39,897 bases of DNA from Clostridia bacterium (lineage in GTDB: Bacteria; Bacillota; Clostridia; Oscillospirales; Acutalibacteraceae): the NCBI GenBank assembly GCA_017624735.1, contig JAGAMK010000049.1, positions 1 through 39,897 of the forward strand. Direction: 5' to 3'. Made by a program: the position numbers and the translations under genes. Each line of letters opens with the position of its first letter. Within the stretch, counting starts at the first letter, position 1. Under the pieces are notes generated by a model, which saw only the letters and a list, made by a program, of their open reading frames with translations, did no database searches and was not told where the DNA came from. This document shows, in pieces, positions 165 to 8,030 of the stretch.

Positions 165-199
165 TATAACAAAAAACCACGGTTTGACACCGTGGTTTT
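165..199 (-). terminator. Intrinsic terminator of the SCP2/transketolase operon
   Basis: Inverted repeat AAAACCACGG (173-182) and CCGTGGTTTT (190-199) with a 7-nt loop. Read on the minus strand it runs into a T-rich tract (170-176). It lies just downstream of the last gene of the minus-strand operon. Confidence 0.85.
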
Positions 200-214
200 C
201 TTATGTCTAAAATC

Positions 215-1021
215 TTATTTAGCCAAGTCGCCAACTTCAAGCATAAATCCACCGAGCTGTGCACCAAATTCAGGACCACCATCCATAATAAGACGTCCTG
301 CTTTTGTTGCTTCAAGCATATCGTCGATGCTTAAAAGGATGCCGAGTGCTGAATCAAGGTTGTTGAAGCGAAGTGTGAAGAAAGGCATTGCTCTCTTGTA
401 TTCGCCACGTCCTGCTCTTGATTTACCTGCTTTAATACGGATGAAAGCAGCAACTTCCGGATGACCGTCAACCGCGAATGCATAAACACGGTCAGGGCTC
501 TTTGAAGTCCAGTCTTTAATTTCTGCATGACCCATTTTGTTAAGCTGGCTGATACCGCTTGAAAGGAGATAGAAGAAGCACTTAACCATAAGAGTTTTTG
601 TTTCTTCATCCTTTGGTGGCTGTGTAGCACCTGTAAGGTCAGAAAGCTTAAGAAGTGTCATAAGCATTGCTGTAAATGCAGGGAAATTCTTAACAACACC
701 CTTCATTTTTGGAAGGGTTTTAGGACCGATTTTGCCCTTGAAGAATGCGTTCATTGCCTCAATAGTTTTGAATTCAAGTTCAACATCAGGAGCTTCGTGA
801 GCAGCGTTGAGTTTTGTTTCCCATTCACCCTCTGTGATGATGAAATGTGTTGCATACTTGCCACCTTCAGCTTCAGGGTCAAGCGCACTAACCTGTAAAA
901 CAGTTGTGAGCTTGTCAAATTTAGCCTTGAGAGATGGAACATCAGTAGCAATAACTTTCAAAAGTGGCAATGCAGCATTGAAAAATATTTTAGATGCATA
1001 AAGTTCTTTTTGTTCGTGCAT
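215..1021 (-). CDS. SCP2-like tandem-domain protein B
   Basis: 268 aa, last gene of the five-gene minus-strand operon. I see two SCP2 (sterol carrier protein 2)-like segments. The first is roughly residues 25-110, with the characteristic PDVELEF...FFKGKIGPKTLPKMKG stretch; the second is roughly 170-268, ending in AGRLIMDGGPEFGAQL. The family binds hydrophobic or bulky ligands in a cytosolic pocket. No signal peptide or membrane segment is seen. The ATG at 1021 is preferred because AGAAAGAGAG lies just upstream; an earlier in-frame TTG at 1048 has no ribosome site. Its overall plan matches protein A at the start of the operon, so the two look like paralogues. The ligand is unknown. SCP2-like fold: fairly sure; function: not known. 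Confidence 0.7.
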   Translation of the reverse strand: MHEQKELYASKIFFNAALPLLKVIATDVPSLKAKFDKLTTVLQVSALDPEAEGGKYATHFIITEGEWETKLNAAHEAPDVELEFKTIEAMNAFFKGKIGPKTLPKMKGVVKNFPAFTAMLMTLLKLSDLTGATQPPKDEETKTLMVKCFFYLLSSGISQLNKMGHAEIKDWTSKSPDRVYAFAVDGHPEVAAFIRIKAGKSRAGRGEYKRAMPFFTLRFNNLDSALGILLSIDDMLEATKAGRLIMDGGPEFGAQLGGFMLEVGDLAK

Positions 1022-1054
1022 AATATCAACTCTCTTTCTGAACAACAAAGTGGA

Positions 1055-2062
1055 TTAAACTTCGTCGTCCCAGTTGTCGTCTTCTTCAAAGTCTGCATTC
1101 ATTGTTTCACGAACTGCAGCGATGATGCCGTTAGCGTCAATACCTGCATCAGACATAATGTCTTCGTGAAGACCAATCATTGCAAAGCTCTTATGACCGA
1201 GCATCTTGAATGCACAACCCTTACCGTACTGAGCCATAACCTCAGCAACTGCTGAACCAAGACCGCCTGTAACAAGATGGTCTTCAACTGTGATGATTCT
1301 TCTTGTTTCAGAAATAGCCTTCTGGATAGCTTCAACGTCGATTGGGCTAATTGTGTGCATATTAAGAACGCGAACACTGAGTCCGTCAGCATTCTTAAGG
1401 AATTTAGCAGCTTCACGAGCCTGGAATACGCAAGAACCACAAGCGATAACTGTGATATCTGTACCTTCGTGAACTTCAACTGCTTTACCAACCTCAAAGC
1501 CATAATCCATATTCTCATAAAGAACACGGTCAAAACCACGGTTGATACGGATATAGTAAGGACCAAAGTTATCATAAGCAGCATTAACTGCGTTTGCTGT
1601 TTCAAAGCCGTCAGCAGGAACGATAACTGTAAGGTTTGGCATTGCTCTTGTAATTGCAAGGTCAGTAATAGCGTGGTGAGTAGAACCAGCCTGACCGAAA
1701 GATGTTCCTGAGTGAGTAGCAATAATCTTTGCGTTTACGTTCTGATAGCAGATGTCTGTGTGAAGCTGGTCACAAGCACGCATTGATGTGAATGCAGAGA
1801 AACCTGAAAGGAAAGGAATCATACCTGCTCTTGCCATACCTGCTGCAACACCGAACATATCCTGCTCTGCGATACCAACGTTGATAACTCTTTCAGGACA
1901 AACCTTTAAAACGTCACCAAGCTTTGTTGATTTTGCAAGGTCAGCTGTAATAGCAACAACCTTTGGGTCTTTCATAATAATGTCGGCAAGTGCCTTACCG
2001 TAAATTTCAGCTGTAGAAAGTGCAGTCTGGTCAACTGCTGTATAAACAAATCCGCCTGCCAT
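1055..2062 (-). CDS. Transketolase C-terminal subunit (split type)
   Basis: 335 aa. It carries the pyrimidine-binding and C-terminal domains of transketolase, the half that completes the thiamine diphosphate site with the upstream gene. The catalytic glutamate motif is visible as NVGIAEQDMFGVAAGMA (Glu66), followed by HSGTSFGQAGSTHHAI and the transketolase C-terminal domain (TVEDHLVTGGLGSAV). It starts 2 nt after the N-terminal subunit stop with GGAGGG upstream, so the two are surely cotranslated. Split transketolases are common in Clostridia and archaea. In this operon the substrate may be specialised, because the partners are an aminotransferase and SCP2-like proteins rather than pentose-phosphate genes. 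A DXP-synthase-like activity is less likely, since the two-gene format is that of transketolase. Confidence 0.9.
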   Translation of the reverse strand: MAGGFVYTAVDQTALSTAEIYGKALADIIMKDPKVVAITADLAKSTKLGDVLKVCPERVINVGIAEQDMFGVAAGMARAGMIPFLSGFSAFTSMRACDQLHTDICYQNVNAKIIATHSGTSFGQAGSTHHAITDLAITRAMPNLTVIVPADGFETANAVNAAYDNFGPYYIRINRGFDRVLYENMDYGFEVGKAVEVHEGTDITVIACGSCVFQAREAAKFLKNADGLSVRVLNMHTISPIDVEAIQKAISETRRIITVEDHLVTGGLGSAVAEVMAQYGKGCAFKMLGHKSFAMIGLHEDIMSDAGIDANGIIAAVRETMNADFEEDDNWDDEV

Positions 2063-2064
2063 AA

Positions 2065-2946
2065 TTATTTACCCTCCTTCTCTGCTCTTGCAACACGAGC
2101 TGCATAGTCTGCATCAAGTTCATTATTGAACTTTTCAAACATTGCATCGTCGATTGCACCATAGTGCCATGTGTAGTCGCCTTCAATTGACTTGATACCT
2201 GCGCCCTTCTTTGTATCCATAAGAATACATGTAGGAGCCTGTGGTTCTTTTGCTCTTTCGATTGCAACGTCAATAGCATCACAGAGTTCACCAATATTGT
2301 TACCATCAACAACGATTGTGTTGAAACCGAATGCTGTCATTTTGTCAGCAAGTGGTTCAAGTTTCTTAATGTCTTCTGTGTTACCGTCAATCATGTTGTG
2401 GTTTCTGTCGATGAATACGATACAGTTAGAAAGGTTATAGTGATTCATTGTCATAAATCCTTCCCAGCATGAACCTTCACCAAGTTCACCGTCACCGGTA
2501 ACTACGTATGTAAGGAAATCTTTGTTCTGAAGTCTTGCTGCAAGTGCTGTACCTGCTGCGATTGATGGACCGTGACCAAGAGAACCTGTTGAAGCATCAA
2601 CGCCTACAACTTTGTTTGAGTCAAGGTGCATACCCATTTTTGAACCTGAAAGGTTGAATGATTTAAGCATTTCAACCGGGTTGAAACCTTTGTCGCAAAG
2701 AACAGGAGCATAAGCAATTGCTGCATGACCTTTTGAAAGAATAAATCTGTCACGGTCGTCCCATTTTGGGTCGTCAACCTTAATGTTGAGATATTTGTGA
2801 TAAAGAACTGTGAGAAGGTCCATAACACTCATACCGCCACCGAAATGTCCGCTACCTGCCCAAACTGTTGTCTGAACGCAGAGTTTACGGAGTTCAAGGG
2901 CTTTCTTTTCGAGTTGGAGCCATTCTGCTTTTGATAAATTAGCCAT
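2065..2946 (-). CDS. Transketolase N-terminal subunit (split type)
   Basis: 293 aa, thiamine diphosphate (pyrophosphate-binding) half of transketolase. Visible motifs are AGSGHFGG (His33), SKGHAAIAY (His73), STGSLGHG, and the TPP/metal motif GDGELGEG (151-158) with DRNHN about 25 residues later. It transfers two-carbon ketol units between sugar phosphates together with the C-terminal subunit immediately downstream. The start at 2946 is chosen for the TTGGAGGG site ahead of it; the longer frame from 2991 would begin inside an intercistronic hairpin. It follows the aminotransferase in the operon. Confidence 0.9.
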   Translation of the reverse strand: MANLSKAEWLQLEKKALELRKLCVQTTVWAGSGHFGGGMSVMDLLTVLYHKYLNIKVDDPKWDDRDRFILSKGHAAIAYAPVLCDKGFNPVEMLKSFNLSGSKMGMHLDSNKVVGVDASTGSLGHGPSIAAGTALAARLQNKDFLTYVVTGDGELGEGSCWEGFMTMNHYNLSNCIVFIDRNHNMIDGNTEDIKKLEPLADKMTAFGFNTIVVDGNNIGELCDAIDVAIERAKEPQAPTCILMDTKKGAGIKSIEGDYTWHYGAIDDAMFEKFNNELDADYAARVARAEKEGK

Positions 2947-2977
2947 AATTTTCCCTCCAAGAAAATATTTTATTAGA

Positions 2978-2997
2978 AGCGAAGTCCCCACTTCGCT
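2978..2997. repeat. Intercistronic hairpin, aminotransferase/transketolase gap
   Basis: Perfect 8-bp stem AGCGAAGT / ACTTCGCT with a CCCC loop, in the 64-nt gap between the aminotransferase stop and the transketolase start. No T-tract follows on the minus strand, so it is not an obvious terminator. It could be an mRNA processing or stability element. Confidence 0.6.
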
Positions 2998-3010
2998 ATG
3001 ATTTGTTTAA

Positions 3011-4279
3011 TTAGCCTTTAAGCTCTGGGTGATTCTTAGCAACTGCTGCGAATGCATCTTCAGCAATATCAATAGATAACTTAATGTCATCTTCTGTAAG
3101 AGAAGCGTTGATGAAATGGTTGTGGTGAGATGTAATGAACAAACCACGGTTAACACATTCTGCAACCCATTCCTGATGAAGCATGAGGTTATCATCGTTA
3201 GCGATTCTTAAATAGAAGAGAGCAGGTTCGCCTGAAACTTTAAGGTCAAAGCCGTGCTCCGCACCTGCTTTTTTGAAGCCTTCTGTAACCATTGTACCAA
3301 GACGGCGGAACATTGTTGGTGTGTCAAGTGCTTTCATCTTGTTGATACAAGCAACGCAAGCTGCGAAAGGAACACCACTCAACCAGTATGAACCTGTGTA
3401 TGTGATACCTGAAACTGTAGCCTTCATATGTTCGCCACCGCAAAGAGCTGACATGTTGTAGCCGTTTGCAAGAGCCTTACAGAAACAGATAAGGTCTGCT
3501 TTGAAACCATAGTAATGGTCAGAACCTGCAAGGTCAAGACGGAAACCTGCACGAACGTCGTCAATGATGAGAACTACGCCGTGGTCGTCACACCATTTAC
3601 GAACTGACTGCCAGTATTCTTTAGAAGCAACTTCGTTATCTTTAAAGTTACCGTGGTCATAAGGCTGTGCAATAAGACCTGCGATATCACCGTTGTTGTC
3701 GTCATATGCCTTCTGAAGAGCATCAAGATCAAACCAAGGACAGATGATGTTGTTAGCAACGTCTTCAGGAGTAATACCTGGGTAGTCAATTTTCTGTGCC
3801 CATGGGAAGTCTCCATGATAGTAGTATTTCAAGAAGATAATCTTCTTTTTATGTGTATGAGCCCTTGCTGCCATTGTTGCAAGAGTTGTTGTGTCCGAAC
3901 CATTCTTGCAGAAGAATGCCCAGTCAGCAGAAGCAACTGTGTCAACAAGTGTTTCAGCACATTCAACCATAACCTTTGCAGGAGCAGTTGTACAGTTACC
4001 GAGTTTTAATTGTTTGAGTGCAGCAGCGTCAACGTCAGGGTCATTATAACCAAGAACGTTAGGTCCATAAGCACACATGTAGTCAATATATCTGTTGCCG
4101 TCAACGTCCCAGAAGTATGAGCCCTGTGCTTTTTCTGAGAAAGAAGGCCATCTGTTTACAGGAATCCACTGACCTTCAGCAGGACCTAAGTGGCCGTAAA
4201 TACCTGATGGAATAACCTTTGTTGCACGGTCGAACATTTCACGGCTTTTTGTTGTGTTATATAATGGAAATTTACTCAT
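3011..4279 (-). CDS. Class III aminotransferase, GSAM-like
   Basis: 422 aa, PLP-dependent fold type I enzyme closest in layout to glutamate-1-semialdehyde 2,1-aminomutase. Features seen: the FWDVDGNRYIDYMCAYGPNVLGYNDPDV region (57-84), NGSDTT phosphate-binding loop (126-131), IIDDVRAGFR (cofactor-nitrogen Asp240) and the Schiff-base lysine in CFCKALANGYN (Lys268). The TAAGGAGG at the stop of the upstream gene doubles as ribosome site for the ATG at 4279, showing tight coupling; the longer frame from 4321 is therefore rejected. No other tetrapyrrole genes are nearby, and the operon holds transketolase and SCP2-like genes, so a haem role is doubtful. More likely it aminates a keto or aldehyde sugar or ketol-derived compound. 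Family: sure; substrate: unknown. Confidence 0.85.
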   Translation of the reverse strand: MSKFPLYNTTKSREMFDRATKVIPSGIYGHLGPAEGQWIPVNRWPSFSEKAQGSYFWDVDGNRYIDYMCAYGPNVLGYNDPDVDAAALKQLKLGNCTTAPAKVMVECAETLVDTVASADWAFFCKNGSDTTTLATMAARAHTHKKKIIFLKYYYHGDFPWAQKIDYPGITPEDVANNIICPWFDLDALQKAYDDNNGDIAGLIAQPYDHGNFKDNEVASKEYWQSVRKWCDDHGVVLIIDDVRAGFRLDLAGSDHYYGFKADLICFCKALANGYNMSALCGGEHMKATVSGITYTGSYWLSGVPFAACVACINKMKALDTPTMFRRLGTMVTEGFKKAGAEHGFDLKVSGEPALFYLRIANDDNLMLHQEWVAECVNRGLFITSHHNHFINASLTEDDIKLSIDIAEDAFAAVAKNHPELKG

Positions 4280-4292
4280 TTTAGTGTCCTCC

Positions 4293-5057
4293 TTATGCCA
4301 AGTAGAGTGCAACTCTGTCAAGGATACGGTTTACATTGTCAACCATTGAAATAAGACCACGGATTGTGATGTTACCGTTACCTACATGGTCGATTGAGTT
4401 TACTGTACCAGCGAAAAGAGCGTTTGCAAGTGGGATGTCACAGAATTCCATAATTGCACGAGGCTTTGGGGATGCCTGTTTAATTGTGATAAGGCGATTG
4501 TTCTTAACACGGATTGTAGCATAAACAGTATCCTTAATACCAATCTGGATATCACCGTCAACGATATTTGAAGCACTGAATTTGCCGATAGCATCCTGAT
4601 TACCAATCTGAGAGATTGCAACAGAAACTGTGTAGAATGTGCAAAGAGTGTTAAGACGGAAGAAGTCAGGGTCTTTTAATGCTTCTGCAGATGGACGCAT
4701 AACTTCTGTGAGTCTGTCTGTGAGAGCAGTGAAAGTCTTTAAAAGGAAATTAATCTTTGTAAGACCCTTTGTTGGGATAGGTGTAACCACACCGTCGATA
4801 ATTTTGTTGAATTTGTCGCAAGATGATACCGGAATTTTAATATCGCACTTGCTGTTGACGCCATCTTCCATACGGCATCCGTTTTTAGAGAATGTGAGTG
4901 TTGCACTTGGACCATCTTTAACGTCAAATGCCAAAGAAACAGGATTTTCAAGAGTTGAAATAATCTCTTTTGCTTTGTCATCAAGTTCGCAAAGGTTTTC
5001 CAATGTGCCGAGAACTGCATACATATTTATGTAAGCTAAAGTTCTTGCGTCAGTCAT
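4293..5057 (-). CDS. SCP2-like tandem-domain protein A
   Basis: 254 aa, first gene of the operon. Two SCP2-like lobes are visible. Lobe one is roughly 30-115 (AFDVKDGPSATLTF...CDIKIPVSSCDKFNKIIDG). Lobe two is roughly 160-254 and ends with PRAIMEFCDIPLANALFAG and NGNITIRGLISMVDNVNRIL, which fits the SCP2 core. The overall plan parallels protein B at the far end of the operon. The start at 5057 is set by AAGGAGG 6-8 nt upstream; the ORF extension to 5078 has no such site. It appears cytosolic, without a signal peptide. It may bind or present a substrate to the aminotransferase and transketolase, but that is inference from gene order alone. Confidence 0.7.
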   Translation of the reverse strand: MTDARTLAYINMYAVLGTLENLCELDDKAKEIISTLENPVSLAFDVKDGPSATLTFSKNGCRMEDGVNSKCDIKIPVSSCDKFNKIIDGVVTPIPTKGLTKINFLLKTFTALTDRLTEVMRPSAEALKDPDFFRLNTLCTFYTVSVAISQIGNQDAIGKFSASNIVDGDIQIGIKDTVYATIRVKNNRLITIKQASPKPRAIMEFCDIPLANALFAGTVNSIDHVGNGNITIRGLISMVDNVNRILDRVALYLA

Positions 5058-5300: not shown

Positions 5301-8030
5301 ATGGGATTATTTAAAAAGTTGTTCGGTGATTACTCTTCACGAGAAATCAAGAGAATTATTCCGATTCAAAAACAGGTTTTAGCACTGGAAGAAGAGTATA
5401 AAGCACTTACAGATGCCCAGCTTCAGGCTAAAACTCCGGAATTTAAAGAAAGACTTAAAAATGGCGAAACTCTTGACGATATTTTGCCGGAAGCATTTGC
5501 TGCTTGTCGTGAGGCATCTGCCCGTGTGCTTAATATGCGTCATTTCCCTGTGCAGATTATCGGTGGTATTGTTCTTCATCAGGGACGAATTGCCGAAATG
5601 AGAACAGGTGAAGGTAAAACTCTTGTTGCAACACTTCCTGCATACCTTAATGCACTTTCAGGCAAGGGTGTTCACGTTGTTACCGTCAATGACTATCTTG
5701 CTCGTCGTGACTCTGAATGGATGGGTAAGCTTTATCGTTTCATGGGACTTTCAGTAGGTCTTATCGTTCACGACCTTGATGGTGAAGAAAGACGCGAGGC
5801 TTATGCTTGTGATATAACTTATGGTACAAACAACGAAATGGGCTTTGACTATCTTCGTGATAATATGGTTATCTATGCTGAGCAGAGAGTTCAGCGTGGA
5901 CATAATTTTGCAATCGTTGACGAGGTTGACTCAATTCTTATCGACGAGGCCAGAACACCACTTATCATTTCCGGTATGGGTGATAAATCCAACGAACTTT
6001 ACAAAGTTGCAAACGACTTTGCAAAGCGTCTTAAAATGTATGTTGTAAAAGAAATCGACTCAAAGCAGGGTATTGAAAATACTGTTCCTGAAGAGTATGA
6101 TTTTGTAGTTGATGAAAAAGGTAAAACAGCATCGCTTACACAGAGCGGTATTAAAAAGGCTGAAAAAGCGTTTGGTGTTGAAAACCTTGCAGATGTTGAA
6201 AACCTTACTCTTCAACATCACCTTGACCTTGCAATTAAAGCAATAGGTGTTATGAAACGTGACGTTGACTATGTTGTAAAAGATGGTCAAGTGCTTATTG
6301 TTGACGAGTTCACAGGCCGTATCATGATGGGTCGTCGATATTCTGACGGTCTTCATCAGGCTATTGAAGCAAAAGAAAATGTTAAGGTTGAAAGAGAGTC
6401 AAAAACTCTTGCTACAATTACTTTCCAGAACTATTTCCGTCAGTACGCTAAACTTTCGGGTATGACTGGTACTGCTATGACAGAAAGCACAGAATTTCAG
6501 GAAATTTACAACCTTGATGTTATTGAAATTCCAACTAACAAGCCAATGATTCGTAAGGATGAAGAAGATGTTCTTTACAAAACAGAGGCTATGAAATTCA
6601 AAGCAATTATTGAGCAGATTCTTGAATGTAACAAGAGCGGACAACCGGTTCTTGTTGGTACAACAAATATCGAAAAGAGCGAACTTTTAAGTAAGGCACT
6701 CAAAAAATTCGGTATCAAGCACAATGTACTCAATGCTAAATATCACGAAAAAGAAGCAGAAATTATTGCTCAGGCGGGTTCTCTTGGTGCAGTTACAATT
6801 GCAACAAATATGGCAGGTCGTGGTACTGACATTATTCTTGGTGGTAACCCTGAATATATGGCAAAAGCCGAGATGAGAAGACTTGAATTCTCCGAAGAGC
6901 TTATTGCTGAGGCAACAGGTTTTGCAGAAACAGATAATGCAGATATCATTGATGCAAGAAACACGTATCGTGAGCTTGAAAAGAAATATAAAGACCAGTT
7001 AAAGGATGAAGCAGATAAAGTCCGCGAAGCAGGTGGCTTGTTCATTATCGGTACTGAACGTCACGAATCACGTCGAATTGACAATCAGCTCCGTGGTCGT
7101 GCAGGTCGTCAGGGCGACCCCGGTCGCAGTAAGTTCTATTTGTCCGCAGAAGACGAGTTGCTCCATCTTTTCGCAGGTGACCGTTTCTACAATATCATTG
7201 ATGCCTTCCCAAGTGCTGCTGACCTTCCTATCGAGGCAAAGATTTTCTCAAGCACCATTGAAAATGCACAGAAAAAGGTTGAAGGCAACCACTTTGCGGC
7301 TCGTCGTAATGTCCTTAAATTCGACGACGTTATGAATGAACAGAGAAAGAAGATTTACGAGCAGAGAAATCAGGTTCTTGATGGCTATGACATCCATGGA
7401 GCAATCCTTAAAATGTTTGACGGATATTTTGAAGAAATGGTTGATTTCTACTGTCCTGAATCACAATCACCTGATGAGTGGAACAGAGCAGGTCTTGTTA
7501 AAAAACTTCAATATCTTGCAGAAGATGGTCTTGAAGAGAAATTTGATACAAATAAAGAATATAAAGATTATTTCTATAACAAGGCTATGGATATCTACAA
7601 GGCTAAGTCCGAGGAATATGGTGAAAACATTATGGCAGAGCTTGAAAGAAAAGTTCTCTTGCGTAATGTTGACCAACGCTGGATGGACCACCTTGATGCT
7701 ATGGAAGAATTAAAACGAGGAATTTACCTCCGTTCTTATGCTCAGCAGGACCCTGTTGTAGCATTCCGTATGGAAAGCTATGATATGTTTGACGAAATGA
7801 ATTCACTTATCCGTGAGGGCACAGTTACAACTCTTACATTATTCCGTTTGAGAAGTGAAGAAGACGTTAAGCGTGAGCAGACAGCAAAAATTACAGCAAC
7901 AAATGGTGCTTCAGATGGTAGTGAAAAGAAACAGCCGGTGAAAAAAGGGCAAAAAGTTGGTAGAAATGACCCATGTCCTTGCGGTAGTGGTAAAAAATAC
8001 AAGAAGTGCTGCGGTGCTAACGAGAACTAA
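5301..8030 (+). CDS. secA: Preprotein translocase ATPase SecA
   Basis: 909 aa, full length for SecA. It is the cytoplasmic and peripheral-membrane ATPase that drives preproteins through SecYEG. Seen in order: Walker [15 protein letters not shown] (100-113), the Walker B/DEAD-like region [20 protein letters not shown] (about 206-225), the preprotein cross-linking domain, motif [35 protein letters not shown], the helical scaffold, and a C-terminal zinc-binding tail [18 protein letters not shown], which is the SecB/ribosome contact module in other bacteria. The ribosome site is AAAGGAT, 12 nt ahead of ATG. Two genes for membrane proteins follow without a terminator, so they are probably cotranscribed. 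Confidence 0.98.

What the first reader, a model, noticed from the sequence alone, without database searches (positions are those of the whole stretch)
215..5057. Operon of two SCP2-like proteins, a GSAM-like aminotransferase and a split transketolase
Five minus-strand genes are tightly spaced, with ribosome sites overlapping upstream stops, one promoter and one terminator. Aminotransferase plus transketolase suggests making an amino-ketose or amino-alcohol by ketol transfer and amination. SCP2-like proteins at both ends suggest a bound or hydrophobic intermediate. No haem, pentose-phosphate or known amino-sugar genes are present. I know of no described pathway with this set.
Basis: partly seen in the sequence, partly recalled or inferred. 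Interest (0 to 1): 0.72.

Follow-up and report, generated by a model that had tools for sequence, protein, structure and literature searches.

The report
Gut Clostridia amino-ketol lipid operon
Gut bacteria share a strongly codon-biased, undescribed five-gene set that probably removes nitrogen from an amino alcohol, perhaps a sphingolipid base, and splits the rest with a modified sugar enzyme, a route that nobody seems to have tested.

Summary
The five genes are real, at the stated coordinates and in the stated order. They form a conserved unit: 69 of 80 related loci carry all five in order, 8 are cut by contig ends, 3 carry only the first two. Two distant Firmicutes families carry the same set. 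The aminotransferase is not a haem GSAM; its nearest solved relative is FumI, which deaminates a long-chain amino-polyol. The split transketolase is not the housekeeping one: in 79 of 79 operon rows (76 different) an Asp and an Arg kept by housekeeping copies are replaced by small residues. The end genes are paralogues with weak SCP2 similarity. A second, co-occurring module (aminotransferase and tandem class II aldolase, in some genomes with FGGY kinase and TetR) points to catabolism. Best reading: breakdown of a hydrophobic, sphingoid-base-like amino-diol by deamination and ketol cleavage (0.38). Rivals: the reverse (synthesis), or a polar amino-polyol. Substrate and direction are inferred. 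Ten searches of open-licence papers showed no description of this gene set.

The parts
4293..5057 (-). SCP2-like protein A (254 aa), two SCP2-like halves; first gene, before the aminotransferase
   Evidence: present in 24 of 25 same-genus genomes and 0 of 15 others of the order
3011..4279 (-). class III aminotransferase AT1, nearest solved relative FumI (aminopentol aminotransferase); PLP lysine K268 kept in 103 of 103 rows (101 different)
2065..2946 (-). split transketolase, N half (ThDP domain); H34, H74, H107, H261 kept in 83 of 83 rows (81 different)
1055..2062 (-). split transketolase, C half; small residue at 18 and Ala at 125 where housekeeping copies have Arg and Asp
215..1021 (-). SCP2-like protein B (268 aa), paralogue of A (hhalign probability 98%)
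2978..2997 (-). 8-bp hairpin in the gap between aminotransferase and transketolase N half; role unknown
173..199 (-). terminator-like hairpin with T-rich arm just after the last gene
   Evidence: minus-strand use read by eye

Best explanation
The operon encodes a dedicated route that deaminates a 2-amino-3-hydroxy compound with the FumI-related aminotransferase (amine to 2-keto-3-hydroxy, amino group to an oxo-acid such as pyruvate). The modified split transketolase then cleaves the resulting hydroxyketone into an aldehyde and a two-carbon ketol, passed to a sugar-phosphate acceptor. The two tandem SCP2-like proteins hold the hydrophobic amine, ketone or aldehyde and hand it between the enzymes. 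The substrate that fits all parts best is a sphingoid-base-like long-chain 2-amino-1,3-diol. A linked second module (second aminotransferase, tandem class II aldolase, in some genomes FGGY kinase and TetR) would do the same for a 2-amino-1,3,4-triol such as phytosphingosine, giving DHAP and an aldehyde. Shown: the gene set, its conservation, kept catalytic residues, changed recognition residues, co-occurrence, strong codon bias. Inferred: substrate, direction, role of the SCP2-like proteins.
For: Five-gene order kept in 69 of 80 loci and in G941, G1082 and G1161 (G913 runs off its contig), where A is only 24-40% identical. No other family is in more than 18 of the 80 neighbourhoods. FumI, the nearest solved relative, takes the 2-amino group off a long-chain amino-polyol using pyruvate (PMC2933618 passages), leaving a 2-keto-3-hydroxy group, the pattern whose bond a transketolase cuts. 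Transketolase Asp to Ala and Arg to A/S/G in 79 of 79 operon rows (76 different); both are kept in the genome's own housekeeping split copy and in three others. Changes at the equivalent Asp in E. coli and yeast transketolase raise activity on aliphatic aldehydes (PMC5573996, PMC6310800 passages). Codon adaptation 0.755-0.848, within the range of the ribosomal region. In the order samples of 394 genomes AT1 is in 24, the second aminotransferase in 18, both in 15; by genus 11, 8 and both 5 of 168, hypergeometric p 2e-5. A TetR of the second module's type sits directly after the five-gene operon in G941 and G1082. In G729 an AT1-like gene lies within about 7 kb of an alanine-dehydrogenase-family gene, a sugar transporter, a split transketolase and a PrpR-type regulator.
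Against: FumI is no closer than Proteobacterial plasmid aminotransferases, and groups with them (37.5% v. up to 39.6% identity); four of the six plasmid neighbourhoods fetched have ABC transporter genes beside the gene. SCP2 similarity is weak. Arg 175 and His 117 of the phosphate site are kept in 79 of 79 rows, so sugar phosphates may still bind. The best aldehyde mutant in the paper kept a charge (Asp to Glu); Ala was not in the passages read. Eleven of 16 neighbourhoods hold only SCP2-A plus aminotransferase. The second module is not universal: G396 has SCP2-A but no second aminotransferase at E 1e-70, and G941 and G1082 lack it. A ceramidase model hits 3 of 30 genus genomes, one over cut-off. 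Labelled sphinganine in mice went almost only to Bacteroides (PMC7910519 passages). Yeast transketolase makes (3S) ketones, while natural sphinganine is 3R (recalled).
Confidence: 0.38

Rival explanations
1. Same enzymes, opposite direction: the transketolase joins a two-carbon ketol from a sugar phosphate to a fatty (or other hydrophobic) aldehyde and the aminotransferase aminates the ketone, making a sphingoid-like 2-amino-1,3-diol membrane lipid without serine palmitoyltransferase.
For: Direct chemical precedent in azinomycin (PMC9570651 passages). Ribosome-like codon bias and near-universal presence in one genus (24 of 25). Large BcrAD_BadFG + DUF2229 proteins, plasmalogen-synthase-like from memory, near the SCP2-A/AT1 pair in L102 and near the second module in L218, but in only these 2 of 227 loci held.
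Against: The linked module pairs an aldolase, in some genomes with a sugar kinase, which makes most sense for cleavage. Alanine-dehydrogenase-family gene and transporters in the G729 region. SCP2-A plus aminotransferase without the transketolase in 11 of 16 neighbourhoods. No sixth family recurs in more than 18 of 80 neighbourhoods, so no conserved lipid-tailoring gene is seen.
Confidence: 0.2
2. A polar amino-polyol or amino-ketose pathway, either direction; the SCP2-like proteins are adaptor or ligand proteins not tied to lipids.
For: Distant relatives of both aminotransferases lie among sugar or small-molecule uptake genes. Parts of the phosphate site are kept. SCP2 similarity weak.
Against: No sixth family, hence no conserved transporter, recurs in more than 18 of 80 neighbourhoods. 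Loss of the Asp and Arg at the substrate site. Two paralogous SCP2-like proteins kept with the enzymes.
Confidence: 0.27
3. An aminomutase role, as in GSAM: the enzyme moves an amino group between neighbouring carbons and the transketolase uses the resulting amino-ketone.
For: Class III fold shared with GSAM.
Against: Much nearer FumI than GSAM among solved structures (308.8 v. 151.7 bits).
Confidence: 0.07

Closest known systems
Azinomycin AziC5/C6 transketolase plus aminotransferase (AziC1 or AziC7)
   Same: Two-carbon extension of an aldehyde by a transketolase, then an aminotransferase step (PMC9570651 passages)
   Different: Polar amino-acid semialdehyde substrate and a secondary-metabolite setting; no SCP2-like proteins in the passages read; sequence relation not tested
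FumI, aminopentol (hydrolysed fumonisin) aminotransferase
   Same: Nearest solved relative, 37.5% identity over 411 residues; takes off the 2-amino group next to a 3-hydroxyl on a long chain
   Different: FumI groups with Proteobacterial plasmid relatives, not with this clade
Split-chain transketolase of Carboxydothermus (6yaj/6yak) and housekeeping split transketolases
   Same: Same two-chain architecture, catalytic residues kept
   Different: Arg and Asp of the substrate site replaced in 79 of 79 operon rows
Glutamate-1-semialdehyde aminomutase (HemL)
   Same: Class III aminotransferase fold
   Different: Far under the HemL cut-off (176.4 v. 527.3 bits)
SgaAB polyketide-derived sphingolipids (PMC12134224)
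   Same: A non-canonical bacterial source of sphingoid bases

Membership tests
Transketolase (split) | ThDP N domain, pyrimidine and C domains in two adjacent chains with catalytic His residues | tested here: met
   H34, H74, H107, H261 in 83 of 83 rows and E66 in 79 of 79
Housekeeping transketolase (pentose phosphate) | Asp and Arg of the sugar-recognition site | tested here: not met
   Ala at 125 in 79 of 79; A 65, S 12, G 2 at 18; own genome has a separate split copy with Arg and Asp
GSAM (HemL) | Score over the curated HemL cut-off | tested here: not met
   176.4 v. 527.3 bits
FumI aminopentol aminotransferase | Groups with FumI in a tree | tested here: not met
   FumI sits with five plasmid rows, support 100/100; main AT1 clade of 20 rows apart, 99/100
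FumI aminopentol aminotransferase | Deaminates long-chain 2-amino-3-hydroxy substrate with pyruvate | not testable with these tools
   needs an assay
SCP2 domain proteins | Score over the PF02036 cut-off | tested here: not met
   window protein A 13.4 v. 21.3 bits, B no match
SCP2 domain proteins | SCP2 fold with hydrophobic cavity | tested here: inconclusive
Azinomycin-type ketol transfer and amination | Transketolase pair and aminotransferase encoded together | tested here: met
Azinomycin-type ketol transfer and amination | Amino-acid semialdehyde acceptor made by AziC2-C4-like enzymes | tested here: inconclusive
   no sixth family recurs in more than 18 of 80 neighbourhoods; AziC homologues were not searched for by name

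The most novel reading that the evidence does not exclude
A transketolase that naturally works on lipids: gut and other anaerobic Firmicutes break down (or build) sphingoid bases by transamination at C2 and ketol cleavage between C2 and C3, with a sister route using a class II aldolase and an FGGY kinase for phytosphingosine, both independent of serine palmitoyltransferase and of sphingosine-1-phosphate lyase.
Probability: 0.27. Interest if true: 0.88.

Novelty: new variant of a known kind. Interest (0 to 1): 0.62.

Why it matters
A five-gene set with ribosome-like codon bias, kept across a gut genus and recurring in distant Firmicutes, has no function that my searches could find. If its substrate is a sphingoid base, it would be a new anaerobic sphingolipid route and a transketolase on lipids, testable in one cultured strain. 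If the substrate is polar, it is still an undescribed amino-polyol pathway with a specific transketolase signature that makes it easy to find.

Tried and rejected
Haem role: rejected, the HemL cut-off is missed by far and no sixth family recurs in more than 18 of 80 neighbourhoods; hem genes were not searched for by name. Housekeeping pentose-phosphate role: rejected, another split transketolase with the usual residues lies on C23. FumI as proof of a lipid substrate: weakened, because plasmid relatives are equally near (six of 29 plasmid records were opened). SCP2-A in viral contigs: 13 pattern matches, none encoding a relative. PDB profile searches with both SCP2-like alignments: no match at E up to 10. 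Ceramidase as support for a sphingolipid diet: 3 of 30 genus genomes (the own one among them, under the cut-off), one over the cut-off, taken as mild evidence against. Promoter upstream of the first gene: none by consensus. Paper searches showed no description of this gene set; only open-licence papers are in that library.

Weak points of my own work. The 80 loci are the best by aminotransferase similarity out of 584 or more relatives, so 69 of 80 speaks for close relatives. Conservation rows include repeats: 79 TK-C rows are 76 different, 83 TK-N are 81, 103 aminotransferase rows are 101. Not every transketolase relative keeps the Asp: a second relative in G316 (L119, 34%) has Leu there and G729's has Gly. 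The codon reference is every plus-strand ORF of a 19-kb ribosomal region, not a curated list. The first tree held a wrong-frame row (L007); I rebuilt without it and without the long row L178. Gene calls in draft genomes are mechanical, and some gene names (secA, DXS, plasmalogen synthase) are by eye or memory. The two 394-genome samples have the same handles wherever rows are shown; the rest of the rows are not printed. Co-occurrence is not corrected for relatedness beyond counting by genus. Residue equivalences between human, yeast and E. coli transketolase numbering are partly recalled.
Full report
What is there. Five minus-strand genes fill 215-5057: SCP2-like A, a class III aminotransferase (AT1), the two halves of a split transketolase, and SCP2-like B, with gaps of 13, 64, 2 and 33 nt and a terminator-like hairpin after the last. 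The consensus scan found no promoter upstream of the first gene. The next gene, divergent at 5301-8030, is secA by eye.

Is it a unit? Of the 80, 69 hold all five genes in this order, 8 are cut by a contig end, and 3 (L077, L081, L102) have room but hold only SCP2-A and AT1. One locus is Eubacterium coprostanoligenes ATCC 51222 (L072). Apart from the five, no family occurs in more than 18 of the 80 neighbourhoods. SCP2-A is in 24 of 25 genomes of the window's genus, and in 0 of 15 others of the order drawn in the same call. In broad samples AT1 is uncommon: 24 of 394 genomes of the order at E 1e-100, 7 of 391 of the class at E 1e-60, of which three incl. the window's are over 60% identical, and 7 of 398 of the phylum at E 1e-70. 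Of 16 neighbourhoods, the 12 from outside the window's family comprise 11 with SCP2-A plus AT1 alone and one (G729) with AT1 and a split transketolase some 5 kb away; the four from within the family hold all five. L154 and L077, both two-gene loci, lie inside the five-gene part of the tree, so the transketolase was probably lost there. In the phylum sample the full set recurs in G941, G1082 and G1161, and in G913 up to its contig end, with SCP2-A only 24-28% identical in G913 and G1161; G999 and G942 hold the pair. G316 and G325, checked genome-wide, have no operon-type transketolase elsewhere.

The aminotransferase. Its best solved relative is FumI (308.8 bits) against 151.7 for the best GSAM; it misses the HemL cut-off widely. 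The PLP lysine K268 is kept in 103 of 103 rows (101 different). FumI transfers the 2-amino group of hydrolysed fumonisin to pyruvate (PMC2933618, passages). In a tree of 39 rows FumI groups with five Proteobacterial plasmid rows (100/100), beside the main AT1 clade (20 rows, 99/100), while the three f117/f190 AT1 rows branch outside both, weakly (80/73). So FumI gives the chemistry of the family, not the substrate of this member.

The transketolase. It is a dedicated copy: the genome has another split transketolase (41% identical) and a one-chain relative (28%) that I take to be DXS. Against human transketolase the residue aligned to Arg 318 is Ala 65, Ser 12 or Gly 2 in 79 operon rows and that aligned to Asp 424 is Ala in 79 of 79, inside an SFGQAG motif. 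The own housekeeping copy and three others keep Arg and Asp; a further relative in G316 has Leu at the Asp place. Catalytic His residues and Arg 175 and His 117 of the phosphate site are kept. I take this Asp to be E. coli D469/yeast D477 (equivalence to human numbering recalled); changes there raise activity on aliphatic aldehydes (PMC5573996 and PMC6310800, passages), though the best one kept a charge and Ala was not in the passages I read.

The SCP2-like proteins. A and B are paralogues (hhalign probability 98.4%, 217 columns; 94.8% with fewer rows). Against an SCP2 profile built here from 20 domains, the second half of each matches at 54-58% probability and the first half at 14-17%. Pfam SCP2 at E up to 1 is met by 12 of 27 A and 4 of 17 B members.

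A linked second module. A second GSAM-like aminotransferase (AT2) with a tandem class II aldolase lies elsewhere in this genome beside an iron alcohol dehydrogenase and within 7 kb of the operon in 9 of the 80 loci, divergently next to it in 6. In the order samples of 394 genomes AT1 is in 24, AT2 in 18 and both in 15; by genus 11, 8 and 5 of 168, p 2e-5, relatedness not modelled. All 13 AT1-bearing genomes of the window's family in that sample have AT2; in a further check 11 of 13 genus genomes have it, the misses being G396, which has SCP2-A, and G409, which lacks SCP2-A too. AT2 is also 73-74% identical in G913, G1161 and G942, but at E 1e-70 it is absent from G941 and G1082 (five genes), from G999, and from all ten two-gene genomes of the order or class in that call; the two-gene G458 has it. 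In L063, L217, L218 and L222 AT2 and the aldolase lie with an FGGY kinase and a TetR regulator, and in L219 with the TetR and part of the kinase. That kinase and TetR were not found beside AT2 in this genome's stretch (L201) or in the other eight of the nine loci, and G606's AT2 has no aldolase beside it. A TetR of the same kind stands directly after the five-gene operon in G941 and G1082, one genus (34% identity). Kinase plus aldolase is a cleavage logic. In G729 the AT1-like gene lies near an alanine-dehydrogenase-family gene, an MFS_2 sugar transporter, a split transketolase and a PrpR-type regulator, again a breakdown setting.

Expression. Codon adaptation of the operon is 0.755-0.848, five of the six highest values among window genes; AT2 is 0.860, the highest of all genes compared. 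These look like major metabolic enzymes.

Reading. Deamination of a 2-amino-3-hydroxy compound followed by ketol cleavage explains the pairing of a FumI-related aminotransferase and a transketolase; a second aminotransferase with aldolase and kinase is the parallel for a triol. Loss of the Asp and Arg at the substrate site, and two SCP2-like partners with no recurrent transporter, point to a hydrophobic, non-sugar substrate; sphingoid bases fit best. Against it stand the weak SCP2 signal, the kept phosphate ligands, the transporter-rich settings of distant relatives, the two-gene loci, the patchy second module, the rarity of ceramidase (3 of 30), the finding that labelled sphinganine in mice went almost only to Bacteroides (PMC7910519, passages), and the stereochemistry of ordinary transketolase. 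I give 0.38 to the catabolic lipid reading, 0.20 to synthesis, 0.27 to a polar substrate.

Novelty. Ketol transfer plus amination is known (azinomycin, PMC9570651, passages). The conserved SCP2-like/aminotransferase/split-transketolase set, its transketolase signature and its link to the aldolase module I found in no paper (search listings; passages of six papers read).

Noticed in passing
L201:271-4473 (G000:C2): Iron alcohol dehydrogenase, second GSAM-like aminotransferase and tandem class II aldolase; the aminotransferase has the highest codon adaptation of all genes compared.
   Followed up: partly
L073:8001-9260: AT1 is 93% identical to the window while its operon partners are 58-74%, which suggests gene replacement inside the operon.
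   Followed up: no
L102:2682-6974 and L218:1332-5669: Large BcrAD_BadFG + DUF2229 proteins (1430 and 1445 aa), plasmalogen-synthase-like from memory, near the SCP2-A/AT1 pair and near the AT2 module; only these 2 of 227 loci.
   Followed up: partly
L155:37-14193 (G729): Region with AT1-like gene, split transketolase that also lacks the active-site Asp but by eye keeps the Arg, alanine-dehydrogenase-family gene, two transporters, old-yellow-type enzyme and a PrpR-type sigma-54 regulator.
   Followed up: partly
L130, L138, L139 (G392, G666, G692): AT1 matches flagged with one TAA inside in three genomes; not examined whether these are true breaks.
   Followed up: no
window 2978-2997: Hairpin in the longest intergenic gap of the operon; not tested for conservation.
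   Followed up: no
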